DNA of 64,000 nucleotides from Mycolicibacterium baixiangningiae (GTDB lineage Bacteria; Actinomycetota; Actinomycetes; Mycobacteriales; Mycobacteriaceae): assembly GCF_016313185.1 (NCBI RefSeq), contig NZ_CP066218.1, positions 5,952,001-6,016,000 on the forward strand, given 5' to 3'. The notes beneath the pieces are model-generated. The model worked only from the letters and a program-made list of their open reading frames with translations, searched no databases and was not told the origin of the DNA. The position numbers and the translations under genes are program-made. Positions 20,015-38,219 of this stretch are shown piece after piece; position 1 is the first letter of the stretch, and each line of letters opens with the position of its first letter.

Positions 20015-20020
20015 GACTCT

Positions 20021-20050
20021 CCAATAACGATACGATGCGGGTTATATTGG
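20021..20050. promoter_or_regulatory. Spaced inverted repeat in the TetR/operon divergent promoter
   Basis: CCAATAAC at 20021 and GTTATATTGG ending at 20050 form an imperfect inverted repeat filling nearly the whole 40-bp gap between the two divergent genes. This is the expected place for a TetR operator controlling both. Confidence 0.5.
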
Positions 20051-20054
20051 AATC

Positions 20055-20696: not shown

Positions 20697-20726
20697 AAGT
20701 CGCCCCTCGACGTCCGGGGCAGTCGA

Positions 20727-21317: not shown

Positions 21318-21433
21318 CGCCGACCCGCCTCTCATGTGATGCCGGTCACACCGGGAATGCCGCCGCCGCCCGAGCGCTTGACCTCAGCGTACTAAGCAAC
21401 ACAACGGTTCGTAATTATGAGGAGGCCATCGCG

Positions 21434-22180
21434 ATGAGCACAGCACCCCTGACCGGACGGCGGGCACTGGTCACCGGAGGCTCACGCGGAATCGGCGCGG
21501 AGATCGTCCGGCGACTGACCGCGGACGGCGCCGCGGTGGCGTTCACCTATTCGGCCTCGGGAACCAATGCCGAGAAGCTGGTCGCCGAGGTGACCGCCAA
21601 CGGCGCCAAAGTCGTGGCCATCCAGGCCGACGCCGCTGATCCGTCCCAGAATGCGAGCGCGGTCGATCGGGCCGTCGCCGAACTCGGCGGCTTGGACGTG
21701 GTGGTGAACAACGCCGCTGTCGCCCACTTCGATGTGATCGGCGACTACCCGCCCGAGCAGTTCGACCGCATGGTGGCCATCAACATCGGTGGCATGTTCT
21801 GGACGACCCGCAGCGCGATCAAGCACCTCAGTGAGGGTGCGCGGATCATCAACATCGGCAGCAGCAACGCCGACCGGGTACCCGGGCCCGGGGTGTCGGT
21901 GTACGCGATGACCAAGGGTGCGGTGTCCTCGTTCACCCGTGGACTGGCCCGCGAACTCGGCCCGAGCGGCATCACTGTCAACAACGTGCAGCCGGGGCCT
22001 GTCGATACCAACATGAATCCTGACAAAGGCGACTTCGCCGAGAGCCTCAAGCAGATCACCGCGCTAGGTCGCTACGGGCACACCGGCGACGTCGCCGCCC
22101 TCGTGAGCTTCTTGGCCGGCCCGGAGTCCGGCTACATCACCGGCGCACACCTCAACGTCGACGGCGGCTTCACCGTTTGA
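21434..22180 (+). CDS. SDR-family oxidoreductase (3-oxoacyl-ACP reductase-like)
   Basis: A 248-residue classical short-chain dehydrogenase. It has TGGSRGIGAEIVRR (cofactor loop) near residue 12, NNAAVAHFD, the catalytic Ser in INIGSSNAD and YAMTK (Tyr and Lys), and ends GYITGAHLNVDGGFTV. AGGAGG lies nine bases before the ATG at 21434. Probably NADP-dependent reduction of a carbonyl compound, induced through the divergent TetR. Confidence 0.88.
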   Translation: MSTAPLTGRRALVTGGSRGIGAEIVRRLTADGAAVAFTYSASGTNAEKLVAEVTANGAKVVAIQADAADPSQNASAVDRAVAELGGLDVVVNNAAVAHFDVIGDYPPEQFDRMVAINIGGMFWTTRSAIKHLSEGARIINIGSSNADRVPGPGVSVYAMTKGAVSSFTRGLARELGPSGITVNNVQPGPVDTNMNPDKGDFAESLKQITALGRYGHTGDVAALVSFLAGPESGYITGAHLNVDGGFTV

Positions 22181-22235
22181 GGACCACCGGCGGTTCGCGT
22201 CGACACAAATCTTTCGACTGAAGGATCCTTTCCTG

Positions 22236-23315
22236 GTGAGCATTCCTCCACCAAGTACCGATGTCCGGCGCGATGACGTGCTGGAAGCCCGACGGCGAAT
22301 CGAGGGCTATGTGCGTCACACGCCGCTACTCAGGGCGGAGGCCGCCGGCATTCGCTTGTTGCTCAAGTGTGAGTTCATGCAACACGCGGGGGTGTTCAAG
22401 ACGCGTGGCGCATTCAACCGTCAACTCGCCGCCCGGGAGCGCGGTGAACTCGATCCGGAGACGGGCATCGTGGTCGCCTCGGGAGGGAACGCCGGATTGG
22501 CACATGCTTATGTGGCCCAACGACTGGGCGTCAAGGCGACGGTCTTCGTTCCGGTGACTGCGCCGCAGGTGAAAGTCGACCGCTTGACTGAATACGGCGC
22601 TGAAGTACGGCAGATCGGTTCGGAATACGCCGAGGCGTACGACGCTGCCCGCGACTACGAGGCAACGTCCGGCGCCCTGTTCTGCCACGCCTACGACCAG
22701 GTAGAGATCTGCGCCGGAGCGGGGACCATTGCCGAGGAGATCTTCGAGGCCGCTCCCGACGTGACGACCATCGTGGTCGCCGTCGGCGGAGGCGGCCTGT
22801 TCAGCGGGTTGTCCGCTGCAGCTGACGGGCGAGCAGAACTTGTTGCCGTTGAGCCGCAGGCCATCCCGACGATGCACGCCGCTCTGGCGGCGGGTGCACC
22901 GGTGGACGTCGAGGTGTCGGGGGTCGCCGCGGACTCCCTCGGCGCACGACGAGTTGGCGATATCGCTTTCACACGAGCCGCTTCCGCTCCCCCACGGTCG
23001 GTGCTGGTGTCGGATGAGGCAATCGTTGATGCGCGAAACGAACTGTGGCAGTCGTTCAGGATCCCGGCCGAGTACGGCGCAGCGGCGGCTTATGCCGCCC
23101 TCACCTCCGGGGCTTACCAACCCGCCCAGGACGGGTGCGTAGCCGTGATCATCTGCGGCGCGAACACCGACCTCAGCACGATCGCCAACCCGGCGTTGAA
23201 CCCCGCGCCTCGGAACTCAGGTAAACCGCCGAGATACGACACTGCGGCCCGCGGGGAACACCGCGAGGACGGCGGCAGTAGTAGTAGTAGAGGTGGTCGG
23301 AATGGTTCGTGGTGA
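22236..23315 (+). CDS. PLP-dependent serine/threonine dehydratase family protein
   Basis: A 359-residue fold-type II PLP enzyme. The Schiff-base lysine is in FKTRGAFN near residue 55, ASGGNAGLAHAYVA binds substrate carboxylate, and VAVGGGGLFSG binds the PLP phosphate. It should deaminate a hydroxy amino acid (threonine, serine or hydroxyaspartate). GTG start at 22236. The last about 38 residues after NTDLSTIANPAL are low-complexity (GGSSSSRGGRNGSW), derived from an AGT repeat, and overlap the next gene's start; they look like a read-through tail rather than a domain. Confidence 0.82.
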   Translation: MSIPPPSTDVRRDDVLEARRRIEGYVRHTPLLRAEAAGIRLLLKCEFMQHAGVFKTRGAFNRQLAARERGELDPETGIVVASGGNAGLAHAYVAQRLGVKATVFVPVTAPQVKVDRLTEYGAEVRQIGSEYAEAYDAARDYEATSGALFCHAYDQVEICAGAGTIAEEIFEAAPDVTTIVVAVGGGGLFSGLSAAADGRAELVAVEPQAIPTMHAALAAGAPVDVEVSGVAADSLGARRVGDIAFTRAASAPPRSVLVSDEAIVDARNELWQSFRIPAEYGAAAAYAALTSGAYQPAQDGCVAVIICGANTDLSTIANPALNPAPRNSGKPPRYDTAARGEHREDGGSSSSRGGRNGSW

Positions 23316-23811
23316 GAGGTGGCCGCGAGGGCTGCTGACGGCTGTCGCGGTGGGCATCCTGGGCGTCGCGCTGGCCGCCTGTGGGACCGTGGCGCCCATC
23401 TCGTCCCCACCGCCACCGGAAACCACGGAAGAAACCGAGATGCCTGCCCATACCGCTTCCGACCCACTCGTTCTCGACCGTCTTCGCGAGGCGATCAATT
23501 CTGGTGACCCAACGCGGGTGGCGGACTGCTTCACCGCCGACTTCCGGGCCGAATTGCCCCATCATCCCGAGCGGAGCTTCATCGGTGCCGAGCGAGTCCA
23601 TGCCAATTGGACGGCGATATTCACCACCGCGCCGCATCTGACCGCCGAAATACTGCGCACCGCCGTGAACGGGGCTGAGATCTGGTCGGAATGGCAGATC
23701 ACCGGCGTCAACACGGCCGGTACTCCGGTAACGTTCGCGGGCCCCGTGATCGTCACAACCCGTAACGGCCAAATCAGCTGGGCCCGATTCTATCTCGACC
23801 CCGTCGGGTAA
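23302..23811 (+). CDS. Lipoprotein with SnoaL-like (NTF2 fold) domain
   Basis: A 169-residue exported protein. The ATG at 23302 gives a signal peptide with hydrophobic core and lipobox (VALAAC), predicting a lipid-anchored cell-envelope protein. After a Pro/Thr/Glu-rich linker, residues about 55-169 form an NTF2/SnoaL-like domain (AINSGDPTRVADCFTADF, FIGAERVHANWTAIF, SEWQITGVNTAGTPVTF). Its role is unknown; such domains bind or isomerise small hydrophobics. It overlaps the dehydratase tail by 14 nt. Confidence 0.72.
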   Translation: MVRGERWPRGLLTAVAVGILGVALAACGTVAPISSPPPPETTEETEMPAHTASDPLVLDRLREAINSGDPTRVADCFTADFRAELPHHPERSFIGAERVHANWTAIFTTAPHLTAEILRTAVNGAEIWSEWQITGVNTAGTPVTFAGPVIVTTRNGQISWARFYLDPVG

Positions 23812-23887
23812 TAGCAGGCTGAGCGCCTGCTGCGGCGCTCGGCCAATGGCGGGCGCACATCACGTCTCTCACAGGAAGGACTGTTAC

Positions 23888-24670
23888 ATGAGTCAAGTCG
23901 TGACGTCGGACAGTTCTGTGCCGCATGGTTCTTGGGCCATGGTCACCGGTTCCACAAGCGGAATCGGACGGGAGACCGCCCTGCGGTTGTCCGACGATGG
24001 CTACTCGATCGTGGTCTGTGGCCGAGATAGGGACCGGGCCGCTGAGACTCGGAAGCTGATCGAGTCGGCCGGCGGGCGCGCGGTGGACCTCGTTGCCGAC
24101 CTCAACGACCCTGCGGCGGCACACGATTTGGTTGCCGAGACGCGCAAGGCGATCAACGGCGGCACCTTGGACGTGCTGGTCAACAACGCCGGCGGCGGCG
24201 GGTTCGCGCGAACCGAGGACACGACCGATGAAATGTTCGACACGGTGTTCAACCTCAACGTCAAAGCGCCGTACGTCCTGACCGGAGCATTCGCGCCCGC
24301 CATGGCCGAGCGCGGACGAGGAGCCATCGTCAACGTCGGCAGTCTCAGCACCACCATGGCCGCCGCCGGGACGAGTGCCTTCCAGGCTGCGAAGGCGGCC
24401 CTCAGCATGTTGACGAAGTCGTGGACCGCGGAATATGGGCCCCGGGGTGTGCGGGTCAACTCGGTCGATCCTGGCTACATCCTCACTCCGATCAACGAGC
24501 ACATGCGCGACATGTACCAGGGATACCTCGCGAGCGTGCCTGCGGGCCGCGGGGGCCGCCCCGAGGAGGTGGCCGAGGCCATCCGATTCCTCGTCTCGCC
24601 AGGTGCTTCCTACATCCAGGGCGCCGTCCTCACCGTTGACGGCGGCAAGAACGCTGTCGTTGCAATGTGA
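23888..24670 (+). CDS. SDR-family protein with catalytic Tyr replaced by Phe
   Basis: A 260-residue short-chain dehydrogenase. The cofactor loop TGSTSGIGRETALRL, NNAGGGGF and the catalytic-position Ser in NVGSLST are present. The YxxxK signature, however, reads SAFQAAK, with Phe165 in place of Tyr and Lys169 kept. The C-terminal SYIQGAVLTVDGG is normal. Loss of the tyrosine hydroxyl should greatly weaken classical oxidoreductase chemistry, so it may be inactive, use another mechanism or act as a binding protein. AGGAAGGA precedes the ATG at 23888. Confidence 0.82.
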   Translation: MSQVVTSDSSVPHGSWAMVTGSTSGIGRETALRLSDDGYSIVVCGRDRDRAAETRKLIESAGGRAVDLVADLNDPAAAHDLVAETRKAINGGTLDVLVNNAGGGGFARTEDTTDEMFDTVFNLNVKAPYVLTGAFAPAMAERGRGAIVNVGSLSTTMAAAGTSAFQAAKAALSMLTKSWTAEYGPRGVRVNSVDPGYILTPINEHMRDMYQGYLASVPAGRGGRPEEVAEAIRFLVSPGASYIQGAVLTVDGGKNAVVAM

Positions 24671-24692
24671 GCCGCCGCCGTTCCGTATGGGC

Positions 24693-24710
24693 CAGGGGTC
24701 TTTCCCCCTG
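24693..24710 (+). terminator. Hairpin after the SDR gene
   Basis: CAGGGG and CCCCTG pair around a TCTTTC loop, 22 nt after the SDR stop and before the converging cbtA gene. The rest of the 24671-24823 gap shows nothing recognisable. Confidence 0.4.
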
Positions 24711-24823
24711 CCGGCGCCGCACCACTGCCCGCTGACGATCTGGCGCGTGACCTGACCGTCGTTGATGACTAGCACGCCGCCGGGGGCTGGCTCGCCTTGG
24801 CTGGCGACACCTACAGCATGTGG

Positions 24824-25618
24824 CTAGACGACGATCGTCTGCTTTCGTCGCTGCCCCAGCAATCTGGAGACCGACGCGGCGAACACCAGGCCGATGGTCA
24901 CCCACATGACCAACTGGGTGCCCAGTGAGAACAGCCGGAACTCGTAGAGATCGTCGGCCGGGAAGCCGCCGAAGACAATGGAGCCGTCAGCGCCGAGGAT
25001 CGGACCGGGAGTCTCGTCGATCGAGGGCAGGACGAGCATGACCACTGCCATCGCGGCGACATAGCTCGCCCCGGCTGCCAGAGCCGCGTTCCAGGTGCCC
25101 AGCTTCGACGAGAGCCGACGTCCGACCTGTGTAGCCGCGGTCAGTGCCACCACTGACAGCGCGACCATCAACAGGTACAACAACGTGCGCTGTTGAAGGG
25201 TGCCGTCCAGGCTGACCGCCGGTGGGTTGGGCGGATACTTCAGCGCCGGAACAACCCACAGCGACAACAACAACGCCCCCGCCAACGACACCGACAGTGT
25301 GCGCGCCGAGATGTCGCCGACCCTGCCGTAGGCCATGCAGAAGACAACGGCCAGCAGTGCGCCCATCGCGACGGAGAACCCCAGCACCCCGAAGCCCATC
25401 CCGACATTGGCCTGCGCGGCGCGGGTGAACAGTTCCACACCCTCCCCATGGGAATGACCGCCATGCGCCGACTCGTGCGCCGCGCTGACTCCTTCCTCGT
25501 ATGCGATCGCTCGTTCGATGACCGGCTCGAGGCGGAATCGTGCAAATACGAACGCTGGTACCGCGCCGGCGACGCCGGCCAACAGACCGCGTCCGATGAT
25601 GTGCTTCTCCATGTTCAA
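24824..25618 (-). CDS. cbtA: Cobalt transporter CbtA
   Basis: A 264-residue inner-membrane protein with five to six hydrophobic helices and the CbtA family layout. The N-terminal GRGLLAGVAGAVPAFVFARF is followed by a His-rich loop (HESAHGGHSHGEG, around residue 46) suited to cobalt capture, then VGMGFGVLGFSVAMGALLA and a PALKYPPNPP motif. It should import Co2+ together with CbtB. CbtAB is often linked to B12 in other bacteria; here the neighbour is a cobalt-type nitrile hydratase, which is the more likely customer. Confidence 0.88.
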   Translation of the reverse strand: MNMEKHIIGRGLLAGVAGAVPAFVFARFRLEPVIERAIAYEEGVSAAHESAHGGHSHGEGVELFTRAAQANVGMGFGVLGFSVAMGALLAVVFCMAYGRVGDISARTLSVSLAGALLLSLWVVPALKYPPNPPAVSLDGTLQQRTLLYLLMVALSVVALTAATQVGRRLSSKLGTWNAALAAGASYVAAMAVVMLVLPSIDETPGPILGADGSIVFGGFPADDLYEFRLFSLGTQLVMWVTIGLVFAASVSRLLGQRRKQTIVV

Positions 25619-25634
25619 CTGATTCGTCGGTGGC

Positions 25635-25844
25635 TCAGTGGCACGGAAAGCCGAGCAGATGGCGTGCGTCGTGGACGAATTCGTGCACGTAGGTGTTGCT
25701 GCCGAACACCGACGTGGCTCCCTGGTCCATGCCGACGAAGTAGAGCGCCAGCAGCGCGAAGAATACGGTGAGTGACAACCAGGCCACCGCCTTGACCGCG
25801 CTGAGGTCCAGTGCGGTGGCGCCGCGTGCCTTCGTGTTTTCCAT
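25635..25844 (-). CDS. cbtB: Cobalt transporter subunit CbtB
   Basis: A 69-residue single-span protein ending in the CbtB metal-binding cluster HEFVHDARHLLGFPCH. One transmembrane helix lies at residues 19-38. GGAAAGG precedes the ATG at 25844. It lies 16 nt upstream of cbtA in the same operon. Confidence 0.9.
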   Translation of the reverse strand: MENTKARGATALDLSAVKAVAWLSLTVFFALLALYFVGMDQGATSVFGSNTYVHEFVHDARHLLGFPCH

Positions 25845-26013
25845 GGTGTTTACCTTTCCGAGGTGTGATACGGGGAAGCCGTTGCAGTGCTGAAGAATCC
25901 GATCATGCTGGAGCGTTACCGGCCATTTCCGAAGGTGACGAGGCCGTCCGGCTCAGTGCGCCGGCCAGCTGTTCGGCGACTGTCTAGGAACGTTATTGGG
26001 CGCGACGGATCCG

Positions 26014-26034
26014 GGCCGGTAGTCATCACCGGCC
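26014..26034 (-). terminator. Hairpin between nitrile hydratase genes and cbtB
   Basis: GGCCGGT and ACCGGCC form a perfect 7-bp stem with a 7-nt loop, 34 nt downstream of the accessory-protein stop. It may separate or attenuate transcription between the hydratase genes and cbtBA. The rest of the 25845-26068 gap shows no B12-riboswitch core that I can recognise. Confidence 0.45.
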
Positions 26035-26068
26035 GGGACCCACCGTGGGTGTGTCAGGTGATTGGCGC

Positions 26069-26539
26069 TCAGGCCGACGCGGCGGAACGTCCGCCGTACA
26101 CCGCGATGGGCTTGATCCGGTCTCGGATCTCCGCCAGCGGGGTCATCGGATGATCATGGTCGTGATCATGTGCCGGTGTGGGGCAGTTGGGTTGCACCCG
26201 AATGTGGTTGGTCAATTCGATGGGCTGGCCGTGCGGGGTGCCCAGATAAGCCAGACGCCACTGTTCATGCCGTTCGTCGACCATGTCCCCGGACAGCCCC
26301 ACATGGCGGTCGATCATCCGGCTGACTGTGGTCAGCCACTGCCGGTAGTAGGACTCGGTGACTGTCTCGTCGTTGCGCCGCGGCGCACCGTTGATCTCGG
26401 CGGAGAACTCGTCGACCCATTCGGTCCAGGTGAACAGCTGCTGGCGGGTCAAGGCCACCACGATCGCGAACGCCTCGACCTGCCAGGGCTCTTCGAAGGC
26501 GACCTCAGGGTCCTCGTCGATCGCCAGAAGCGCGTTCAC
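26069..26539 (-). CDS. Nitrile hydratase accessory / activator protein
   Basis: A 156-residue protein of the nitrile hydratase accessory family (related to the beta-subunit N-domain and to P14K/NhlE activators). It shows EEPWQVEAFAIVVALTRQQLFTWTEWVDEFSAEI, the conserved helical core. The C-terminus has a Cys/His cluster (CPTPAHDHDHDH, near residue 125) that could bind cobalt. Such proteins deliver the metal to, or drive oxidation of, the alpha-subunit cysteines. The GTG at 26539 overlaps the upstream stop (GTGA), so it is translationally coupled to the hydratase. Confidence 0.82.
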   Translation of the reverse strand: MNALLAIDEDPEVAFEEPWQVEAFAIVVALTRQQLFTWTEWVDEFSAEINGAPRRNDETVTESYYRQWLTTVSRMIDRHVGLSGDMVDERHEQWRLAYLGTPHGQPIELTNHIRVQPNCPTPAHDHDHDHPMTPLAEIRDRIKPIAVYGGRSAASA

Positions 26540-26895
26540 GACGCCTGCGCCGGGTCGAGGTAGCTGTCCCACAGGTCGATGTAGATCCACGAGTTGGGGG
26601 TGCCGCGGTCACCGAACAGTTCGCTGCTGCTGAACTTGATGGAGTAAAGGTGTTCCGGGTTTTCGCCGAGGCCATGCGCCATGGTGTCGGGATAGATGAA
26701 GAACCCTTGATGGCGGTCGACGATGCCGACGTGCCCCTTGGCGTAGCCGGGCAGGCGGGTGTGCCCGATCGGATTGTGGTTGCGGACCACCACCGTGTCA
26801 CCCGCGGAGAAGCGGGGTGCGACGGTGACGGGCCGGGTGAAGTCGCCGGGGGTTCGAATTGCACCGAACACCTCGGTAGGCGCTAGTTTTTGCAT
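26536..26895 (-). CDS. Nitrile hydratase beta subunit, C-terminal half as separate gene
   Basis: A 119-residue protein equal to the SH3-like C-terminal domain of nitrile hydratase beta: FSAGDTVVVRNHNPIGHTRLPGYAKGHVGIV, FIYPDTMAHGLGENPEHLYSIKF and NSWIYIDLWDSYLDPA. It starts with its own ATG at 26895, separated from the N-terminal-half gene by one base after a TGA, with AAGGA upstream. This clean junction argues for a genuine split, as in thiocyanate hydrolase and toyocamycin nitrile hydratase, rather than a sequencing error. Confidence 0.88.
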   Translation of the reverse strand: MQKLAPTEVFGAIRTPGDFTRPVTVAPRFSAGDTVVVRNHNPIGHTRLPGYAKGHVGIVDRHQGFFIYPDTMAHGLGENPEHLYSIKFSSSELFGDRGTPNSWIYIDLWDSYLDPAQAS

Positions 26896-26896
26896 G

Positions 26897-27211
26897 TCAG
26901 GCGATTTCCTTTGCTTCGATCTCGGCGATCCGCTCAGCCAGCTCTTCTTCGGTGAACAACCCGTTGGCGAAGCCGAGGTTCTCCGCAGCTCGTAGCCAGT
27001 GCACGTAGTAGGGGGTGCCGAGGTACTCGGCGGGGTCCATGATCTCGATGGAGTGCCGGAACTCATCCAGCGGGCACAGCCCGGAGGCGAAGTACATTCC
27101 GATGACCGAGAAGATGTCCTTCTCCCAGTCGCCGTGGAACACGACTTCCTCGTCCTCGGTCTTGACGGTGCCCATGCCGTCTTTGCCGCCGACGTCGTGA
27201 ATTCCGTTCAT
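26897..27211 (-). CDS. Nitrile hydratase beta subunit, N-terminal half as separate gene
   Basis: A 104-residue helical protein matching the N-terminal domain of nitrile hydratase beta. It begins [14 protein letters not shown], contains [20 protein letters not shown] and the catalytic-arginine segment [16 protein letters not shown], and ends [14 protein letters not shown] plus a short acidic helix. The ATG at 27211 overlaps the alpha stop by four bases. With the next gene it would form a three-polypeptide hydratase with alpha. Confidence 0.9.
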
Positions 27212-27834
27212 GCCGCGACTCCTTCGGGGGTCGAGGCCAGTTTGGTGCCGATCATCGCGTCTCGGCTCACCAGCTCGGCGAGTTGTTCGATGGTGAATTC
27301 CTCTGTCCCGGAGGGTCGTTGTGGGATGACGATGTAGCGAATCTCGGCGGTGCTATCCCACACCCGGATCTCGATGTTGTCTGGCAGTGTCGTTCCGAAC
27401 TCGCCCAGCACCACCCGTGGCTCGAAGACCACCCGGGACCGGTATTGAGGCGCTTTGTACCAAGCCGGCGGCAGTCCCAGCACGGCCCAGGGATAACACG
27501 AGCACAGCGTGCACACCACCACGTTGTGCACTTCGTCGGTGTTCTCGACGAAGATGACGTGCGCTCCCTCGAAGCCTGTCATGCCGAGTTCGGCAAGAGT
27601 GGAGGTGCCGTCACTCAGCAGCTTTGCCTTGAATTCCGGTTCCACCCACGCCCGGGCGATCACCGCGGCGCCGTCCTTGGGACCGATGCGGTTCTCGTAG
27701 ATGTCGACCACTTCGTTGAAGGAGTCGGGGTCGATGATGCCCTTTTCCACCAGTAGTGACTGCACCGCTTTGATCCGTAACTGGGCATAGGGCGGCGGCG
27801 CGGTGTAGCCGTCACTGCGTGTGATTTCTTCCAT
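27208..27834 (-). CDS. nthA: Nitrile hydratase alpha subunit, cobalt type
   Basis: A 208-residue metal-bearing subunit. The metal claw is VCTLCSC at residues 107-113; Thr in second place (CTLCSC) is typical of Co(III) enzymes, whereas Fe enzymes have CSLCSC. Flanking [31 protein letters not shown] and [18 protein letters not shown] are classic. The two outer claw cysteines are normally oxidised to sulfinate and sulfenate. Reaction: nitrile (or thiocyanate) hydration to amide. Cobalt use fits the cbtAB genes downstream. Confidence 0.93.
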
Positions 27835-27862
27835 CGTGTGGTGGATCCTTTCCTCGGTTCGG

Positions 27863-29647
27863 TCAGCGGATGCTGGCCAGAGCGGCGTCGGTTGCGGCGT
27901 CGGCGGTTGTGGGCCGGTCCGGCGCGGATAGGGCGCGGTAATGATGCGGCAAACGCATGCTCACCAAGTCCTTGCGGCGGACGACATTCGCCGGGTACGG
28001 ACCGGGGCCGTCGCTGGTGTCGATGGGTGCCAGCAGCACCTCGGCGGCGGGCCCCGCCACTCGCTCACGACGCGGGAACTCAAAGGTGTCGGGCCCGAAG
28101 ACCCCACTGCGGCCACCGAACTCAGGCGGATTGGCATACGCCAGATACACGTTGTTCTCCCCCGCCCGCACCCGCATGTGATGCCAGTGCAGGTGGCTGG
28201 CGGCGCGGGGAATCGGATAGTTGAGCGGTACCGTCGTGCCGGGGTGACCGTGGTGCAAGGTTGCGGCGATACGCGCGGGCACCGCGATCACGTCGCAACC
28301 CCGAAGGGCCGCCACCCGACCCGACTCGGGGCGCAGAACATCGTCGCCGTGCAGCAACGCCACCCGACCCACCCGGATGTCGGCGTGGGTCCAGGAATCG
28401 CCGGCAGCGAAGTACATGTCGTCGTCGTCACTGAGGTGGATCTTGCGGTGGACCGCGACGATCCCTTCCGGCCCGATGAGCACCGCGCTGTTGTAGGGAG
28501 ACATCCCGGCTGCACCGCGCTCAGCCATTCCGACCACCAGGTAGCCGTTGCAACCGGCCGCGGCATCCAGTAGAGGCTGCAGAATGCCCTCGGTATCAAT
28601 GCTTTCCGCGTAGTCGGCCGAGGCGCTGGGCGGACCCGAGACACTGAGCTCGGGAAATACAACCAGGTCCGCGCCGTCACCGACCGCCTCGACGAAGGTC
28701 GCGCGGATCTGCGCGATGTTCGCCGTTGCGTCGGAGGTGCTGTCGTGCTGGGCCACTGCGAGCACCGAGGCCCGGCCGGGCGGCATCGGGGCATTGCCGT
28801 AGAGGGTGAAGAAATCCCGGGGATTCCACAGGTAGCTGTTGATGTGCAGATCGCGGTACAACTGAGGCCGGCGTCCCGAAAGTCCGGACGCCCCCGTCGC
28901 CCTGGCGGCTTGCACCGCTGCGAGGTTGATCTCTGCGGTGACCACACCGTCACCGCTGTCGCAGGAGGCCAAGACCCCTGAATCCGGTGCGATGATGCAT
29001 GATCCGCCGCTGAACTGCACACCGCGTTCCAAGCCCCACCGGTTGCTTTCGATCAGGTAGCAGGAGTTCTCGAAGGCCCGGCTGATCCAGTACGGCGCAG
29101 GGGTGCGCTCGGCCAGCCAGTTGCTGATGTGGCAGATCACGTCGGCACCGCCGAGCGCCACCACTCTGGCGGTCTCGACGAAGTGGATGTCCATGCAGAT
29201 CAGCAGCGCGATCCGGCCCAGCGGTGTGTCGAAGACCTGGTGTCCGAGGTCGCCGGGGGCCGCCCATTTGGGTTCGGCGATGTAGCCGTGCGTCTTTCGG
29301 TGGGTGCCGATGATCCCCTGCGGCCCGATGAGGACTGCCGAGTTGTACAGCAGACCGGTCTCCAGATCGCGTTCCGGCATGCCGATCACGATGTGGCAGT
29401 CGTGGATTGCGGCGAGCTCGGCGAAGATCTCGGTGCTGGGCCCTGGCACCGGCTCGGCCATGGTCTCGGCCTCGGCGGTACCGAAGAAGCAGTAGCCGGA
29501 GATACCCATCTCCGGTGTGGTGATGAGCTTCGCCCCTCCGACCGCGGCCTCTTCGACCAGTTCGACGAGCCGGGTGATGTTGCGCTGCTTGTCGAACAAC
29601 ACTGGCTCGAACTGGACCGCCGCCGCCACATAGGTCGTCTCCGACAC
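27863..29647 (-). CDS. Tandem nitrilase-superfamily hydrolase, second domain degenerate
   Basis: A 594-residue protein with two CN-hydrolase domains. Domain 1 (about 1-285) has the full triad: Glu46 in PEMGISGY, Lys118 in HRKTHG and Cys151 in LICMDIHF. Domain 2 (about 293-594) keeps Glu333 (FPELSVSG) and Lys402 (HRKIHL), but the cysteine position reads LLHGDD, with His433 instead of Cys. Domain 2 is therefore probably structural. As the first gene of the hydratase operon, it may hydrolyse the amide product or a nitrile to the acid, replacing the amidase usually found there. Confidence 0.85.
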
Positions 29648-29734
29648 GGGTTTCCTTCCGTCGTCATCGCTACCACCACCGCGAAAAGCGGCTTTGGTGA
29701 CGGCGTGAACGTTAGGAATCTCGTGTGTCTACTG

Positions 29735-29756
29735 CGTACGAATCAGGTTACGTACG
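29735..29756. promoter_or_regulatory. Paired CGTACG palindromes upstream of the nitrilase gene
   Basis: CGTACG occurs at 29735-29740 and 29751-29756, 16 bp apart and therefore inverted with respect to each other, about 90-110 bp upstream of the hydratase operon. A possible operator for the MarR or AmiC-like regulators. Confidence 0.4.
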
Positions 29757-29774
29757 TGTTGAAGAAACCACATT

Positions 29775-29833
29775 ATGTTTCGGTCATGTTGCCTACAGTG
29801 CCTTGAACTGGCATTTTCATTTGGCCGAAACAT
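29775..29833. promoter_or_regulatory. Long-spaced perfect 9-bp inverted repeat upstream of the hydratase operon
   Basis: ATGTTTCGG (29775-29783) and CCGAAACAT (29825-29833) are exact reverse complements 41 bp apart. Between them is a smaller TGCC...GGCA repeat. No coding frame covers 29648-29966, so the repeat probably belongs to the promoter of the nitrilase/hydratase operon. It is a likely operator pair or mRNA hairpin. Confidence 0.45.
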
Positions 29834-29966
29834 TTTTCGCGGCGAACCTATGGGCCTGAATTGGGCAGCGACCTGCGTCTGAAGCGATGCCACGGGCACT
29901 GGGAACCGATGGGCCGATGACGTCGCACGGCGGTCCAGGGGCCTCCAGCCCGTTATCGGCGGGCCG

Positions 29967-30407
29967 CTACACCGAAGCGTCGGTGGCGACCGCGGCAGAG
30001 CCGTCGAACAGTTCGGCCACCAATTCGCACAGTTCGGCCAGGCGCTGTAGTTGGCTGACGCCATAGAGGGTGTCGCATCGATCCAGCGCTTCCGCCAGCA
30101 TGCGGTGTGAACTAGTCCCCCGGGGCGTCAGGCGGACGTTGATCCGGCGCCGGTCGACCGTGTCGATTCGGCGGTATACGAGGTTGTTGGCGACCATTCG
30201 GTCGACCATTTTGGTCAACGCCGGCGGCAGAATCGATGTCGCGTCGCTGATCGAGGACATCACCCGAGGTTGTCCGTCTCTCAACAGGTCCAAGATGCGC
30301 CACTCATCGAGCGAACAACCCTCGGCCGACAGGACCTCGCGGACGCGCTCCAGCAACACGTTCTCCGCGGCGCTGAGAGCGAACGCCGCCCGGCTCACCG
30401 TTCCCAA
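29967..30407 (-). CDS. MarR-family regulator (NhhD/NhlD-like)
   Basis: A 146-residue winged-helix protein. The wHTH runs about residues 32-95 (LDEWRILDLLRDGQPRVMSSISD, KMVDRMVANNLVYRRIDTVDRRRINVRLTPRG), typical MarR. The TTG at 30407 is preceded by GGAGG nine bases upstream, which supports it as start. It is divergent from an AmiC-like gene and lies upstream of the hydratase operon. In Rhodococcus rhodochrous J1 an equivalent MarR-like/AmiC-like pair controls nitrile hydratase expression, so an amide-responsive role here is a reasonable inference. Confidence 0.82.
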   Translation of the reverse strand: MGTVSRAAFALSAAENVLLERVREVLSAEGCSLDEWRILDLLRDGQPRVMSSISDATSILPPALTKMVDRMVANNLVYRRIDTVDRRRINVRLTPRGTSSHRMLAEALDRCDTLYGVSQLQRLAELCELVAELFDGSAAVATDASV

Positions 30408-30481
30408 TTGTCGTCACCTCCGGTTTCGTTTACCGTAGCGGTTTGTCGGGCACGTTGCGCCAGGGAGTCCGAGTGGACGGG

Positions 30482-31582
30482 ATGGCTCGAGTCATGAAAA
30501 GTTCTTCCACCAAGAGCGATGCCATCGTGGTCGGTGTCGTGAATCCGATGCAGGGACCGCTCGGGATAATCGGGCCTGCGGCGCAGATGTGTGCGGAGTT
30601 GGCGGCCGAAGAGATCAACGTCGCGGGTGGGATCCTTGGCCGCGAGCTCGAGCTCATGCATCTCGACGGTGGTGCTCCGACACCGGCGATACGCGCCGAA
30701 GTCACCGAACTCGTCATGTCCGGATCAGTGCAAGCGATCGCCGGCGTGCACACCTCTGCCGTGCGGGAATCCCTGATGACGGCGATCGGCGGAACCATCC
30801 CCTACATCTACAACTCCCTTTATGAGGGCGGCGAGCGCACGCCAGGCCTGTTCGTCACCGGCGAGACACCGGAGTATCAGCTTCTGCCGGCGTTGACCTT
30901 GTTGAGCAGGGAACGCCACATCGAGCACTGGGCGCTGGTGGGCAACGATTACGTATGGCCACGTCGCACCGCCGCAGCGGTACAGCGGCATTTGGCGGCA
31001 ACCGGCAGCGGCGTGCTGCTCGGCGAGATGTACACGCCCCTAGGGTCTCCCGACTTCGGACCGGTCCTGGATCGTCTCGGACGCTCGCAGGCCACCGGCG
31101 TCATCGTGTTACTCGTAGGGCAAGACGCCGTAGAGTTCCACCGCCAGTATGGAGCCCGAGGCCTCCATGCCAAGGCGCTGCGCGTCACACCGCTCATGGA
31201 CGAGAACATGCTGCTCGCGGCCGGCGCGCACGCCTGCCGCGATTTGTTCGTCGGCGCCGGATACTTTTCGTCGCTGCACACCACCGACAGCCTCGACTTC
31301 ATCAGCAGATTCGCACGTCGTTTCGGTGTCGAATCGCCCATCGTCGGGACCATGGCCGAGTCCTGCTACGAAGGCCTGCACCTCTTGGCCACCCTAGCGG
31401 GCGCGGCGGGCACGCTCGACGTTGCAGCGATGCAAACCCTTTCTGACACAATGGTTTACGAATGCGCACGTGGTGTGCAGCGCTTGCATGCCGGCCACGC
31501 TGCTCCCACGACATACCTAGCCGAAGTCGACGGACTGGAGTTCGACGTGCTCACCGAACTGACCCCTGTCACACTCCCCTAA
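30482..31582 (+). CDS. AmiC-like amide-sensing periplasmic-binding-fold protein (NhhC/NhlC-like)
   Basis: A 366-residue type I periplasmic-binding-fold protein without signal peptide, so cytoplasmic. It opens VVGVVNPMQGPLGIIGPAAQMCAELAAEEIN and continues GGILGRELELMHLDGG, the AmiC/branched-chain-binding layout, with YNSLYEGGERTPGLFVTGETPEYQ lining the ligand site. AmiC and NhhC relieve repression when amides bind. The start is uncertain: the ATG at 30482 is chosen, and 30494 or the TTG at 30443 are alternatives. It is divergent from the MarR gene. Confidence 0.8.
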   Translation: MARVMKSSSTKSDAIVVGVVNPMQGPLGIIGPAAQMCAELAAEEINVAGGILGRELELMHLDGGAPTPAIRAEVTELVMSGSVQAIAGVHTSAVRESLMTAIGGTIPYIYNSLYEGGERTPGLFVTGETPEYQLLPALTLLSRERHIEHWALVGNDYVWPRRTAAAVQRHLAATGSGVLLGEMYTPLGSPDFGPVLDRLGRSQATGVIVLLVGQDAVEFHRQYGARGLHAKALRVTPLMDENMLLAAGAHACRDLFVGAGYFSSLHTTDSLDFISRFARRFGVESPIVGTMAESCYEGLHLLATLAGAAGTLDVAAMQTLSDTMVYECARGVQRLHAGHAAPTTYLAEVDGLEFDVLTELTPVTLP

Positions 31583-31588
31583 CCGGTA

Positions 31589-31609
31589 CGTGGGGCAGCC
31601 ACCCCCACG
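31589..31609 (+). terminator. Hairpin terminator after the AmiC-like gene
   Basis: CGTGGGG and CCCCACG form a perfect 7-bp stem (loop CAGCCAC) 7 nt after the stop. A second 9-bp inverted repeat (CGGCGTAAC at 31608, GTTACGCCG ending 31650) overlaps its end. Confidence 0.6.
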
Positions 31610-31728
31610 GCGTAACGAACGGATCGGCGGACACAGCGATGGTTACGCCGGTTACCCCCCGCTGACGCGAAACCAGTTGACTGCCATATCTATTGGAGGG
31701 CAACAGTCCGAATACCAGTCAGATGCGG

Positions 31729-32328
31729 TCAGGCGTGCGAAACGTCGAAGACCAATTCGATTGCCTGCTCACCTGCGGTACTGATCACAGAAGTCGATGC
31801 GCCTTGGGTGCGGGTGGACTCCATGCCGCGCAGCAGCGTCAGCAGCAGGCTGGCCAGTGCCCGCGTGTCTCGGCCCGCGGATATGTCGCCGTCGGCCTGT
31901 GCCTCCGCCAAGGTGGCGGCCAGATCCCGGCGCCAGGTGTCCAGCATGCGTTTGGTGTGCTTGGCCACTTCCCGGTCGGAGGATGCCAACTCCGCGGCGC
32001 TCTTCGATACGAGGCAGCCCCGCCGGTTGTGGTCGGCCAGCGTCATCTGCACGAGCCGCCTAATGTGGCCTGTCAAGCGCTGTTTCGCAGAACCATCGGC
32101 CAGGCGCAGTTCGTGGTGATTGTGCTCGACCATGGATTCCACGTAGCCATCCAACGCCTTTACGTACAGGGAGTGCTTGTCCCCGAAAGCCCCGTACAGG
32201 CTGCCGCGACCAAGCCCGGTGGCCGCGACCAGATCATCGACGGAGGTGGCGGCGTAGCCGTGCGACCAAAAGACGTCACGCGCGCCAGATCCCGATTCTG
32301 ATCGCTGGATCCGGCGCCAAGCGCACAC
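31729..32328 (-). pseudogene. TetR-family regulator with lost N-terminus
   Basis: An open frame of 199 codons. From RDVFWSHGYAATSVDDLVAATGLGRGSLYGAFGDKHSLY onward it is a normal TetR/AcrR protein of about 185 residues, including most of the HTH. The first about 14 residues (MCAWRRIQRSESGS) are not TetR-like: they are the antisense of an LLM oxidoreductase fragment that begins at 32292 on the other strand. The first helix of the DNA-binding domain is therefore missing, and the frame is a recombination product. It may still be translated, but DNA binding is doubtful. Confidence 0.65.
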
Positions 32329-32606
32329 TGCCCGCCGTCGCAGGCCACGCCGATATCTGGCATACGTTCCTGGAGATCGACGACTTCAAGAAGGCAACCA
32401 AGATCGTCGACGAACTCGCCGAACAGGCCGGCCGATCTGGCAGCGAGATCGAACGCTCCGTCACCTGGCGCAGCGCGGACACCGTCGACGCCTACCTCGA
32501 CGCCGGGGCGACCACCTTCATGTGCGAGATCCACCCCAACCCCACCGACGGATTCGACTTCACCGTCCTCGAAGAGATGCTCACCTGGCGCGACCGCCAA
32601 CGCTGA
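32292..32606 (+). pseudogene. LLM-class oxidoreductase C-terminal fragment
   Basis: The plus-strand frame from 32292 to the TGA at 32604-32606 reads PILIAGSGAKRTLPAVAGHADIW and continues to TVLEEMLTWRDRQR. This is the C-terminal third of an F420-dependent LLM enzyme (ILIGGSG...K.L..VA.HAD signature). There is no start codon or N-terminal two-thirds; the break point is where the TetR frame on the other strand also loses homology. Confidence 0.7.
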
Positions 32607-32650
32607 CACCGGCAACACCGCCGGAGCGGCGAGATTCTTACTCGTGTCCG

Positions 32651-32706
32651 GGCCGACGGAGTCGTAGGCCATCAGCGGGGTGGCCACCGTTCTCGGAAAC
32701 AGCCGG
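32651..32706. repeat. 56-bp degenerate direct repeat, copy 1
   Basis: Matches 38164-38219 at 50 of 56 positions. On the minus strand both copies can be read as RLFPRT(M/V)ATPL(M/V)AYDSVG, so they are probably two remnants of one unidentified coding family. Confidence 0.6.
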
Positions 32707-32740
32707 AAGTCTGGGAATAAGAACGAGCGGCGCCGCGGCT

Positions 32741-33187
32741 ATGCACCACATGAATCTCGACGGGTCCGCTCGCGCGCTCATCGGCTCCGGGGCTGACGCT
32801 ACGCTGGTCACCCTGAACCCCGACGGCAGCCCGCAGGTCTCGGTGGTCTGGGTGGCGTTACGGTCGGCGCCCGAAGGCGATGAACTGGTGGCCGCTCATC
32901 TCCACGAGTACCGCAAGACGCGCAATATCCGCCGCGACGGGCGGGTCGCCGTCACCATCCTTGCCCCCAAGATTTCGGGACAGCCGACGCCGTACCTGTC
33001 GATCATCGGTACGGCACGAATCATCGAGGGCGGAGCGCCCGCACTGTCCGCCGAGTTGGCTGAGGCGATGCTCGGTTCGAGCGAGCACTTCCCTCCTCCC
33101 AACGCGGACCCTGGATTCGTTACACGCATCCAGATCGAGAAAGTCGGCGGAAGCCTCGTCGACCCGCCCATCGCCCGGAGTACATGA
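32741..33187 (+). CDS. PPOX-fold F420/FMN-dependent oxidoreductase (FDOR-like)
   Basis: A 148-residue split-barrel protein of the pyridoxamine-phosphate-oxidase superfamily. [42 protein letters not shown] and [14 protein letters not shown] are typical of mycobacterial PPOX-class F420-dependent enzymes. The ATG at 32741 is chosen because homology begins there; the longer open frame upstream covers the LLM remnant. The C-terminus lacks the usual GPW end and stops at DPPIARST. Substrate unknown. Confidence 0.75.
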
Positions 33188-33228
33188 CCCGGTGATTTCA
33201 CCGTCTGCACCATCCAGCGTGGCTGCAG

Positions 33229-33622
33229 CTATGGGGCGAGCTGACGTTCGAGTTGCTCGACATCGTGCAGGTTCGACATGTGCACGAACCGTCCGCCTTC
33301 TACTTCGTAGAGCGCGACCTCGCTGATCTCGAACGACCCACCCGGTGGGTTCCACGCCCAGCCACTCCTTCACAGGGGTGCCAGTATTGGTCAGTCGTGC
33401 AGCCAAGCGACTGCCGTGTACCAGCGATTCCTCTAATTCTCAGTGGAAGTCGGGGACTGCATCGACGATGCTCATGAGGTCCGCAATGACGTCGTCACGG
33501 GTCCCCGGCTTGCCGTGGTGAGCGGTGCGGTCGCTGATGAACTCGTCCATGCGTTCAAAGGCACGATCGTTGATCGCTTCAATGTAGCGACGGTACATCT
33601 CGCGTAGATCGATGTCGGACAC
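33229..33622 (-). pseudogene. SnoaL-like ester cyclase, disrupted by stop and frameshift
   Basis: The first 60 codons (MSDIDLREMYRRYIEAINDR to IVDAVPDFH) are the start of a SnoaL-like polyketide/ester cyclase. The next codon, expected Trp, is TGA. Homology continues in frame ([24 protein letters not shown]), then jumps one frame to [19 protein letters not shown] and ends LERQLAP at a TAG. One nonsense and one frameshift lesion inactivate an otherwise full-length gene of about 130 codons. Sequencing error in both places is possible but less likely. Confidence 0.75.
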
Positions 33623-33851
33623 GGCCTGCCTCAGCCTCCTGCGCTCGCTCGACCATCGCGGGAGAGACTTCAGCCGTCAACGGTCCATGGTTCAATCGGT
33701 GTCAGCCATCCATGTCGAATGGTCACACCACACCGACCTTCGACTGAACCGGCTGATTCCCCGAATTCGGCCCCGGAGTGCGCTGAGATGTCGGACCTGC
33801 CGTCTACGATTCCTGCGGCACCCCACCCGGCATTGATGGAGAAGACGAGCA

Positions 33852-35885
33852 GTGAGTTACACCGCCGCTGACATCACCGAGCTCGACGATGTCCAGCACA
33901 CACGCCTGCGGCCGGCGGTGAACCTCGGCCTGGATGTGCTCAACACCGCATTGCGCGAGCTGGTGGACAACGCGGTCGAAGAGGTCGCCGATCCCAGCCA
34001 CGGCGGGTCGACCGTGACGATCACCCTGCACGCCGACGGGTCGGTCAGTGTCGCCGACGACGGCCGCGGCCTGCCCGTGGACTCTGACCCGGTGAATGGG
34101 AAGAACGGCATCGTCAAGACGCTGGGTACCGCGCGGGCGGGCGGCAAGTTCTCCGTGCATGCCGACGCGGCCAGCACGGGCGCCGGTCTCAACGGAATCG
34201 GCGCCGCCGCAGCGGTGTTCATTTCCGCGCGGACCGATGTGACGGTGCGCCGGGCCGGCAAGAGCTACCTGCAGAGTTTTGGCGGCGGCTACCCTGGAGT
34301 GTTCGACGGCAAGGACTTCGACCCGAACGCCCCGTTCACCCGTGCCGATACGCAGAGGCTGCGGGGCACCGGCAACCGCAAGCCCGACGCGCACGGCACC
34401 ACGGTCCGCATCCTGTTCGATCCGGCCGTCGTGCCGGATTCCAGCGTGGACATCAACGAGGTGCTGCTGCGAGCGCACGCCGCGGCACGGATGTCGCCGG
34501 GGGTGCACCTGGTAGTTGTCGACGAAGGCTGGCCCGGCGACGAGATCCGGCCCGAGTTGGTCGAGCCGTTCAGCGGTCCCTGGGGTACCGACACATTGCT
34601 GGACCTCATGTGCGTGGCCGCCGGCACGCCTGTGCCCGACGTGCGGGCTGTGGTGGAGGGGCGCGGTGAATACACCACCGGGCGTGGCCCGACCCCGTTC
34701 CGTTGGTCATTGACCGCCGGACCTGCCGAACCGGCCACCGTGGCCGCATTCTGCAACACCGTGCGCACCCCCGGCGGTGGGTCCCACCTGACGGCCGCGG
34801 TGAAAGGGCTGTCGGAGGCGTTGGCCGACCGCGCTTCCCGCATGCGCGACCTCGGCCTGGCCAAAGGTGAAGACGGTCCGGAGGCACAGGATTTCGCCGC
34901 GGTCACAGCGCTGGCCGTCGATACCCGCGCGCCCGATGTGGCCTGGGACTCCCAAGCCAAGACCGCGGTGTCATCGCGGTCGCTGAACCTCGCGATGGCC
35001 CCGGATGTGGCGCGCGGCGTCACCATCTGGGCGGCCAACCCCGCCAACGGCGACACCGTGTCACTGTGGACCAAGCTGGCGCTGGAGGCCGCCCGAGCAC
35101 GGCGCAGCGCCGAAGGCGCCAAAGCGCGGTCCCGAGCGGCGTCGAAAGCCAAAGGTCTCGGCACGAACCTGTCCCTGCCGCCGAAGCTACTGCCCAGCAG
35201 GGAGACCGGGCGCGGGTCGGGAGCCGAGCTGTTCCTGTGCGAGGGTGACTCCGCACTCGGCACCATCAAAGCGGCACGCGACGCCACCTTCCAAGCCGCT
35301 TTCCCGCTGAAAGGCAAGCCGCCCAACGTGTACGGGTTCGCGCTGAGCAAGGCGCGGGTGAAGGACGAGTTCGACTCGATCGAGCGCATCCTGGGATGCG
35401 GGGTGCGCGACCACTGTGACCCGGAACAGTGTCGCTACGACCGGATCCTGTTCGCCTCCGACGCCGACCCCGACGGCGGCAACATCAACTCGAGTTTGAT
35501 CTCGATGTTCCTGGACTTCTACCGCCCGCTCATCGAAGCCGGAATGGTCTACGTGACGCTGCCGCCACTGTTCGTGGTCAAGGACGGCACCCAGCGGATC
35601 TACTGCCAGGACGAATCCGAGCGCGACGCCGCCGTCGCCCAGCTGCGGGCCACCTCCAAACGCAAAGTGGAAGTGCAGCGCAACAAGGGACTCGGCGAGA
35701 TGGATGCCGACGACTTCTGGAACACCGTGCTGGATCCGCAGCGGCGCACCGTGATTCGAGTGCACCTCGACGATGGTGAAGCAAAGCTGCACCACACTCT
35801 GTTCGGCGGGCCGCCGGAGGGCCGCCGCACCTGGATGGCCGATATCGCTTCCCGGGTCGACACCTCTGCTCTGGACCTCGACTAG
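33852..35885 (+). CDS. topoN: Atypical type II topoisomerase, GyrB/ParE-like subunit (TopoN-like)
   Basis: A 677-residue ATPase subunit. The GHKL domain has Glu36 in RELVDNAVEE, DDGRGLPV and a lid reading GAGLNGIGAAAAV where GyrB has GGLHGVG. The Toprim domain has LCEGDSALG near residue 463 and ASDADPDGGNI near 536 (GyrB: DADVDGxHI), then QRNKGLGEMD. It resembles the TopoN subunit of the extra type II topoisomerase of M. smegmatis rather than housekeeping GyrB. GTG start at 33852; the GyrA-like partner follows after 9 nt. Confidence 0.85.
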   Translation: MSYTAADITELDDVQHTRLRPAVNLGLDVLNTALRELVDNAVEEVADPSHGGSTVTITLHADGSVSVADDGRGLPVDSDPVNGKNGIVKTLGTARAGGKFSVHADAASTGAGLNGIGAAAAVFISARTDVTVRRAGKSYLQSFGGGYPGVFDGKDFDPNAPFTRADTQRLRGTGNRKPDAHGTTVRILFDPAVVPDSSVDINEVLLRAHAAARMSPGVHLVVVDEGWPGDEIRPELVEPFSGPWGTDTLLDLMCVAAGTPVPDVRAVVEGRGEYTTGRGPTPFRWSLTAGPAEPATVAAFCNTVRTPGGGSHLTAAVKGLSEALADRASRMRDLGLAKGEDGPEAQDFAAVTALAVDTRAPDVAWDSQAKTAVSSRSLNLAMAPDVARGVTIWAANPANGDTVSLWTKLALEAARARRSAEGAKARSRAASKAKGLGTNLSLPPKLLPSRETGRGSGAELFLCEGDSALGTIKAARDATFQAAFPLKGKPPNVYGFALSKARVKDEFDSIERILGCGVRDHCDPEQCRYDRILFASDADPDGGNINSSLISMFLDFYRPLIEAGMVYVTLPPLFVVKDGTQRIYCQDESERDAAVAQLRATSKRKVEVQRNKGLGEMDADDFWNTVLDPQRRTVIRVHLDDGEAKLHHTLFGGPPEGRRTWMADIASRVDTSALDLD

Positions 35886-35894
35886 GAGAGCGAT

Positions 35895-38024: not shown

Positions 38025-38163
38025 ACGGCACAGATCTCGTAGCCGTCCTGGATTACATGCTTCCCGCCACGTTCGCGTCGTCGCGAGCGATCGGCTGCTT
38101 AGCCCGCGATCGAGTCTCGAGCGTCTAGCATCGCCAGGTCCGCCGCCGAGCGCCCGGCGCCCA

Positions 38164-38219
38164 GGCCGACGGAATCGTAGGCCACCAGCGGAGTCGCCAT
38201 CGTTCTCGGGAACAGCCGG
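38164..38219. repeat. 56-bp degenerate direct repeat, copy 2
   Basis: Second copy of the 32651-32706 repeat. Here the minus-strand reading extends both ways (AADEAFTRLFPRTMATPL before, DSVGLGAGRSAADLAML after), giving about 45 residues of an unrecognised protein remnant. Confidence 0.6.

What the first reader, a model, noticed from the sequence alone, without database searches (positions are those of the whole stretch)
24824..31582. Self-contained cobalt nitrile hydratase island with a three-polypeptide enzyme
One contiguous block holds an alpha subunit with the Co-type VCTLCSC claw, the beta subunit as two separate genes (N half 26897-27211, C half 26536-26895), an accessory protein with a CPTPAHDHDHDH tail, CbtAB cobalt import, a tandem nitrilase, and a MarR/AmiC-like regulator pair. 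Split beta subunits are known in thiocyanate hydrolase and toyocamycin nitrile hydratase, not in the usual rhodococcal enzymes. The combination with dedicated cobalt uptake and a nitrilase instead of an amidase looks new to me.
Basis: partly seen in the sequence, partly recalled or inferred. Interest (0 to 1): 0.78.

Follow-up and report, generated by a model that had tools for sequence, protein, structure and literature searches.

The report
Split-subunit cobalt nitrile hydratase cassette
A mycobacterium carries a compact, exchangeable gene cassette that probably turns nitriles into usable nitrogen with a cobalt enzyme whose second subunit is made as two separate proteins; the enzyme type is known, but its apparent nitrogen-starvation switch and its half-dead partner enzyme are worth testing.

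Summary
In detail: alpha, two half-beta genes, a P14K-type activator, CbtBA, a tandem nitrilase-superfamily enzyme and a MarR/AmiC-like pair sit where stated. The beta split is genuine: the same junction recurs in four Mycobacterium genomes, with low dN/dS. The claim of a new combination fails: alpha-betaN-betaC-activator-CbtB-CbtA lies on an Aminobacter plasmid, and on Agrobacterium plasmids with MarR and an AmiC-like gene; three-subunit cobalt nitrile hydratases are published. Alpha is nitrile hydratase, not thiocyanate hydrolase. The 'nitrilase' is nearest in structure to an archaeal amidase (in sequence, to an archaeal 'nitrilase'), so it probably does the amidase step; its second half lacks the catalytic Cys in 120 of 120 listed relatives. 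New here: the core cassette is conserved in four genomes without shared flanking genes in the stretches read, but modules change. The cobalt importer is CbtBA, CbiMNQO or none; this genome's regulator pair looks replaced. Two GlnR-like boxes 30-31 bp apart precede the operon in 4 of 4 genomes, and the strict tandem pattern occurs once in each. Verdict: new variant of a known kind.

The parts
27863..29647 (-). tandem nitrilase-superfamily enzyme: active half (E46, K118, C151) and second half with Gly434 in place of the catalytic Cys; probable amidase step
27208..27834 (-). nitrile hydratase alpha subunit, cobalt-type claw VCTLCSC (Cys108, 111, 113)
26897..27211 (-). betaN: N-terminal half of the beta subunit as a separate protein, carries R52, E56, Y68, W72
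26536..26895 (-). betaC: C-terminal half of the beta subunit as a separate protein, carries R47 (position 157 of the Pseudonocardia enzyme)
26069..26542 (-). P14K-type activator / metallochaperone, TIGR03889, with a CPTPAHDHDHDH tail; GTG start overlapping the betaC stop
25635..25844 (-). CbtB, predicted cobalt importer subunit
24824..25618 (-). CbtA, predicted cobalt importer subunit
29967..30407 (-). MarR-type regulator
30443..31582 (+). AmiC/UrtA-like amide or urea sensor protein
29777..29792 (-). first GlnR-like box upstream of Nit
29747..29762 (-). second, weaker GlnR-like box, 30 bp downstream of the first

Best explanation
This is a nitrogen-scavenging cassette built round a cobalt nitrile hydratase of composition alpha + betaN + betaC. 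Likely sequence of events: nitrogen shortage lets GlnR activate the operon through two boxes upstream of nit (inferred); an amide bound by the AmiC-like protein relieves MarR (inferred); CbtBA brings cobalt in (predicted family function); the His-rich activator loads cobalt into alpha by subunit swapping, as P14K does in Pseudomonas putida (inferred from homology); alpha then assembles with the two beta halves, and the two beta arginines that hold the oxidised claw (their role recalled) sit on two different chains, R52 on betaN and the R157 equivalent on betaC (positions shown, assembly inferred). The enzyme hydrates a nitrile to its amide, and the first half of the tandem nitrilase-fold protein hydrolyses the amide to acid and ammonia (inferred). 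The core nit-alpha-betaN-betaC-activator is kept as a unit in different surroundings, while cobalt importer and regulator pair differ (shown by comparison).
Against: No expression, activity, metal or complex data. cbtBA is 224 bp from the activator gene; G192 has a thiolase and a FadJ-type gene there and no importer in the stretch read. The best PDB match of the AmiC-like protein is a generic ligand-binding receptor (8tg1), and urea-binding proteins score above AmiC. The GlnR boxes were noticed before the pattern was written, so the test is post hoc; one single-box match in 64 kb is no more than chance (1.62 expected). The best sequence match of Nit in the PDB, 3ivz (2.3e-43), is titled nitrilase or beta-ureidopropionase, and 3ivz ranks third by structure, so amidase against nitrilase activity is open.
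Confidence: 0.75

Rival explanations
1. The two beta genes are one gene broken by a sequencing error or a recent frameshift.
For: One base separates stop and start (TGAcATG); most beta subunits are one protein: 25 of 30 genus loci read were fused.
Against: Same junction in four genomes; stand-alone relatives beginning with Met, 104 of 106 listed ones of at most 130 aa; dN/dS 0.07-0.18.
Confidence: 0.02
2. The enzyme is a thiocyanate hydrolase rather than a nitrile hydratase.
For: Thiocyanate hydrolase is a relative with three polypeptides (recalled); alpha also hits its gamma subunit (3vyg 2.8e-43, 2dd4 2.2e-41).
Against: Alpha is below the curated cut-off of TIGR03887 and above that of TIGR01323; another locus of the same genome passes TIGR03887 with 384.7 bits.
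Confidence: 0.05
3. CbtBA is a bystander that feeds vitamin B12 synthesis, not the nitrile hydratase.
For: 224-bp gap; absent next to two of four cassettes; CbtAB and similar candidate importers were reported almost only in B12-making organisms (PMC2667541 passages).
Against: No Rfam family match, so no cobalamin riboswitch at the gathering score, in the window; another importer type, CbiMNQO, takes the same place in MBM; a second CbtA and a CbiM lie elsewhere in the genome; CbtB within 1.5 kb of alpha in 10 of 13 two-subunit loci of the genus.
Confidence: 0.2
4. The tandem nitrilase-fold protein is a true nitrilase that acts in parallel on nitriles.
For: Best PDB sequence match 3ivz is titled nitrilase or beta-ureidopropionase, third by structure; best NCBIfam match is NF040852 nitrilase, 243 bits, below its cut-off of 500.
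Against: Top structural match 6ypa is an amidase with glutaramide bound; on the one Klebsiella plasmid read, a relative sits with an acetamidase/formamidase family gene and an ANTAR regulator and no nitrile hydratase in the stretch; the place before alpha is held by an amidase in Aminobacter, Rahnella and A. rubi.
Confidence: 0.25

Closest known systems
Pseudomonas putida NRRL-18668 cobalt nitrile hydratase (alpha, beta, P14K)
   Same: Gene order alpha-beta-activator and P14K-type activator; self-subunit swapping shown there (PMC3511329 passages); Co-type enzyme chains of the 3qxe group are the best PDB matches to both beta halves (that they are from P. putida is said in a passage of PMC8278588).
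   Different: Beta is one chain there, two here; no tandem amidase or Cbt importer mentioned in the passages seen.
Aminobacter sp. MSH1 plasmid pUSP2 nitrile hydratase cluster
   Same: alpha, two SH3-like beta halves, activator, CbtB, CbtA annotated in the same order; alpha 56% identical.
   Different: A separate amidase upstream instead of the tandem enzyme; junction TGATG instead of TGAcATG; falls in another group of the tree.
Agrobacterium vitis and A. tumefaciens plasmid clusters
   Same: Split beta, activator, CbtB, CbtA, MarR and AmiC-like genes.
   Different: Separate amidase and, in A. vitis, an aldoxime dehydratase-family gene; an added phosphatase gene.
Streptomyces canus CGMCC 13662 and Microvirga flocculans three-subunit cobalt nitrile hydratases
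   Same: One alpha and two beta polypeptides, cobalt type (review passages in PMC11573777; primary papers not seen).
   Different: S. canus: no activator found; M. flocculans: alpha gene lies between the two beta genes.
Toyocamycin nitrile hydratase
   Same: Three different polypeptides, (alpha beta gamma)2 (passages of PMC8574189).
   Different: Antibiotic biosynthesis (recalled); its sequences were not compared here.
Rhodococcus rhodochrous nitrile hydratase clusters (strain BX2 record; strain BAA-870 paper)
   Same: Activator, cobalt importer, amidase and an AmiC-like protein close by in BX2; cobalt transport genes in the cluster of BAA-870 (PMC6941271 passages).
   Different: beta before alpha, one-chain beta, HoxN-type importer in BX2.

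Membership tests
Cobalt-type nitrile hydratase | alpha subunit above the curated cut-off of TIGR01323 | tested here: met
   290.4 bits against 249.85
Cobalt-type nitrile hydratase | claw motif VCTLCSC | tested here: met
   Cys108, 111, 113
Cobalt-type nitrile hydratase | both beta domains with the claw-binding arginines | tested here: met
   R52 on betaN, R47 = position 157 on betaC; role of the residues recalled
Cobalt-type nitrile hydratase | one-chain beta subunit (TIGR03888 above 152.2 bits) | tested here: not met
   121.4 and 101.7 bits on two proteins: the chain is divided, so it is a variant of the family and not a standard two-subunit member
Cobalt-type nitrile hydratase | bound cobalt and nitrile hydration | not testable with these tools
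   needs protein
Three-subunit nitrile hydratase | beta encoded by two genes, conserved | tested here: met
Three-subunit nitrile hydratase | hetero-oligomer of three chains | not testable with these tools
   needs protein
Thiocyanate hydrolase | gamma subunit above the cut-off of TIGR03887 | tested here: not met
   184 against 291.45 bits; positive control in the same genome 384.7
P14K-type nitrile hydratase activator | TIGR03889 above cut-off | tested here: met
   72.6 against 46 bits
CbtAB cobalt importer | PF09490 and PF09489 above gathering score, adjacent genes | tested here: met
   237.4 against 30.7 and 36.6 against 27 bits; below the stricter NCBIfam cut-offs of TIGR02458 and TIGR02459
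Nitrilase superfamily | Glu-Lys-Cys triad | tested here: met
   first half: Cys and Lys in 120 of 120, Glu in 118 of 120 (2 gaps); second half has Gly for Cys in 120 of 120
Amidase against nitrilase within the superfamily | hydrolysis of amides, not nitriles | tested here: inconclusive
   structure nearest to an amidase, sequence nearest to a 'nitrilase'
MarR/AmiC-type control of nitrile hydratase | amide-responsive control of the operon | not testable with these tools
   homology only
GlnR regulon | Gn2AC-n6-GnAACA site in the promoter (PMC3662644 passages) | tested here: met
   first box, 29776-29792 with the trailing A; the second box at 29747-29762 departs from it
GlnR regulon | GlnR binding and nitrogen-dependent transcription | not testable with these tools
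   needs binding and expression data

The most novel reading that the evidence does not exclude
Dividing beta makes betaN and the activator, which share a domain family (PF21006), direct competitors for alpha, so cobalt loading could run by exchange of one half-subunit (activator out, betaN in) with betaC closing the site last; the whole sits in a GlnR-controlled cassette whose core moves as a unit while importer and sensor modules are swapped, together with an amidase that depends on a conserved dead twin domain.
Probability: 0.25. Interest if true: 0.65.

Novelty: new variant of a known kind. Interest (0 to 1): 0.45.

Why it matters
It shows that a divided beta subunit can be a stable form, kept in several actinobacterial and proteobacterial groups, and it gives a natural system for asking how the activator and betaN trade places on alpha. 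The exchangeable importer and sensor slots show which functions a cobalt nitrile hydratase needs nearby. A cobalt enzyme under apparent nitrogen-starvation control would link nitrile use to the GlnR network; no paper holding both 'nitrile hydratase' and 'GlnR' was found in the one library search made for it.

Tried and rejected
Sequencing-error and thiocyanate-hydrolase readings were tested and rejected. Riboswitch control of cbtBA: no Rfam match in the window, and in L066, L067, L087, L088 and L089 only four tRNAs in L067. The promoter and terminator scan of 25600-30500 gave about as many hits as shuffles (1 against 0.7, 3 against 2.8), and the activator-cbtB gap folds no better than shuffles (z -0.17). 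Base composition in 2-kb steps does not set the block apart; no tRNA gene in the window. One origin of the Mycobacterium/Prauserella-type and Agrobacterium/Aminobacter-type splits: rejected as a clade of 9 rows (p-AU 0.0016), not rejected if the fused Rahnella row is added (p-AU 0.461), so two splits, or one split and a re-fusion, remain open. dN/dS of AmiC against L066 and L067 failed (12 and 7 aligned codons) and was discarded; MarR values are unsafe (dS above 1). The tree used 70 of 79 loci with all three parts: eight near-copies and L030 (no claw motif in my extracted alpha; L051, with the same fault, was kept) were dropped, and seven loci lacking a part were skipped. L076 (Streptomyces NBC_01483) is counted as split by the script but its junction is irregular, and L019/L020 may be another three-subunit type. 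Only the 30 best of the genus matches were checked for split or fused (4 split, 25 fused, 1 undecided). The first synteny test printed only ORFs between 15000 and 45000 and had some wrong ORFs; it was repeated with the proper genes. Literature searches for the layout; none of the listings or passages I saw describes alpha-betaN-betaC-activator-CbtBA, but most subscription papers are not held. The second half of Nit was not folded or searched alone.
Full report
What is there. The window lies in a 6.18-Mb one-contig genome (G000). The five genes nit-alpha-betaN-betaC-activator are tightly packed: 28 bp between nit and alpha, ATGA overlap between alpha and betaN, TGAcATG between betaN and betaC, GTGA overlap between betaC and the activator. 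cbtB follows after 224 bp, then cbtA. marR and the AmiC-like gene diverge with 35 bp between the starts used here.

The split is real. Of 396 genomes of the genus, 242 have a match to betaC; four match at 87-100% identity (G000, G192, G080, G145) and the next best at 49%. Those four are split at the same place with the same TGAcATG junction; of the 26 next best loci 25 are fused and one could not be judged; weaker matches were not checked. A stand-alone betaC 75% identical is also listed for Mycobacterium sp. 21AC1. dN/dS between the window and the three Mycobacterium relatives is 0.06-0.08 for alpha, 0.12-0.18 for betaN, 0.07-0.14 for betaC and 0.10-0.15 for the activator. The junction falls in the poorly conserved linker between the two beta domains.

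The active site is complete but spread over three chains. Alpha has the VCTLCSC claw with Cys at 108, 111 and 113. betaN aligns without gaps to the Pseudonocardia-type enzyme (1ugp) and keeps L48, F51, R52, E56, Y68 and W72; betaC residues 20-114 match residues 130-224 of 1ire_B, which puts its R47 at position 157. The roles of these residues and the source organism of those PDB entries are recalled. Thus the two claw-binding arginines are on different polypeptides.

Which enzyme it is. Alpha passes the curated model of nitrile hydratase alpha and fails that of thiocyanate hydrolase gamma; its best solved relatives are cobalt nitrile hydratases. The genome has two further loci of this superfamily: a fused-beta locus (L068, claw VCTMCSC) and one that passes the thiocyanate hydrolase gamma model with 384.7 bits (L069). 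That locus serves as a positive control; there both beta domains are in one frame, the reverse of the textbook picture (recalled).

How common the split is. A length-limited search with an alignment of betaC relatives found 5328 matches among 8000 scored candidates; of the 121 proteins listed over two searches, 106 are at most 130 aa and 104 of these begin with Met. Many come from short contigs, so some may be cut genes. Named holders include Agrobacterium vitis, Paraburkholderia, Caballeronia, Mesorhizobium and Saccharopolyspora. Clusters alpha-betaN-betaC-activator with CbtB and CbtA are on plasmids of Aminobacter sp. MSH1 (as annotated), A. vitis and A. tumefaciens, the latter two with MarR and AmiC-like genes. 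In a tree of 70 alpha+beta pairs, 12 of them split, the label needs five changes, at least three forced by well supported branches; the window group (5 rows) has support 100/100. The Agrobacterium-type group may or may not share its origin. Published three-subunit cobalt enzymes are reviewed in PMC11573777 (passages); toyocamycin nitrile hydratase is (alpha beta gamma)2 (PMC8574189 passages).

The cobalt slot. CbtB lies within 1.5 kb of alpha in 10 of the 13 two-subunit loci of the genus read (L002-L010, L015-L018). Among the four split cassettes, CbtBA follows the activator in the window and in MS1601; in MBM the place is taken by a DUF1097 gene and CbiM, CbiN, CbiQ and an ABC ATPase; in G192 a thiolase and a FadJ-type gene follow. 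The genome of the window has a second CbtA and a CbiM elsewhere. A dedicated supply is therefore likely, though not shown.

A cassette with exchangeable modules. Twelve flanking window genes (seven left, five right) have no tblastn match, and the flanking DNA 15000-24823 and 31583-45000 no blastn match, at E up to 1e-5 in the 19-kb stretches round the other three cassettes (an earlier, coarser test agrees). Those stretches reach only a few kb beyond each cassette, so distant synteny is not excluded. Core proteins are 79-94% identical in the pairs compared (Nit in three genomes only, G192 left out). MarR and the AmiC-like protein of the window are only 47-51% and 58-59% identical to those of the other three, which are 77-82% and 87-89% identical to each other. 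Since the window's core groups with G192 (99/87), the simplest reading is that the regulator pair of the window was replaced.

Nitrogen control. Upstream of nit in 4 of 4 genomes lie two boxes of the form NNAAC-n6-GNAAC, 30-31 bp apart; the first fits the M. smegmatis GlnR site Gn2AC-n6GnAACA in all four (PMC3662644 passages). With a 16-base gap the strict tandem pattern occurs once in G000 and once in G080, and with a 17-base gap once in G192 and once in G145, each time at nit; the reversed control pattern never occurs. The pattern was written after seeing the sequences, and a single box in 64 kb is expected by chance, so this is a strong lead and not proof.

Verdict. A real, conserved, three-polypeptide cobalt nitrile hydratase cassette; a new variant of a known kind. 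The split and the CbtAB link already occur in many public records. The modular exchange, the paired GlnR-like boxes and the half-dead amidase are what is worth following.

Noticed in passing
window 27863-29647 and relatives P0011-P0130: Large family of tandem CN-hydrolases (median 579 aa among 120 listed) whose second half has Gly in place of the catalytic Cys in 120 of 120 while keeping Glu: a conserved pseudo-enzyme half.
   Followed up: partly
L069 (own genome 5798000-5811000) and L090-L101: A nitrile hydratase/thiocyanate hydrolase-type locus in the genus with claw VCALCSC instead of VCTLCSC in 11 of 13 loci read; in L069, the only one tested by model, it passes the thiocyanate hydrolase gamma cut-off and both beta domains are in one frame.
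   Followed up: partly
L065, about 10834-12617 minus strand: In G192 the Nit reading frame is interrupted and no cobalt importer follows the activator gene, so this copy of the cassette may be decaying or misassembled.
   Followed up: no
L067 6310-9372 minus strand: In MBM a DUF1097 gene and a CbiMNQO-type cobalt importer lie directly behind the activator gene, in the place of CbtBA.
   Followed up: yes
L080 8342-17949: Tandem CN-hydrolase with a purine/cytosine-type permease, Asp/Glu racemase, MarR- and AmiC-like genes but no nitrile hydratase found in the 20 kb read: perhaps an amide-use cluster.
   Followed up: partly
window 33852-38024: A DNA gyrase/topoisomerase IV-like B and A gene pair close to the cassette.
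   Followed up: no
window 15531-17909: PEP synthase-like protein related to prodigiosin ligase and rifamycin phosphotransferase models, all below cut-off.
   Followed up: no
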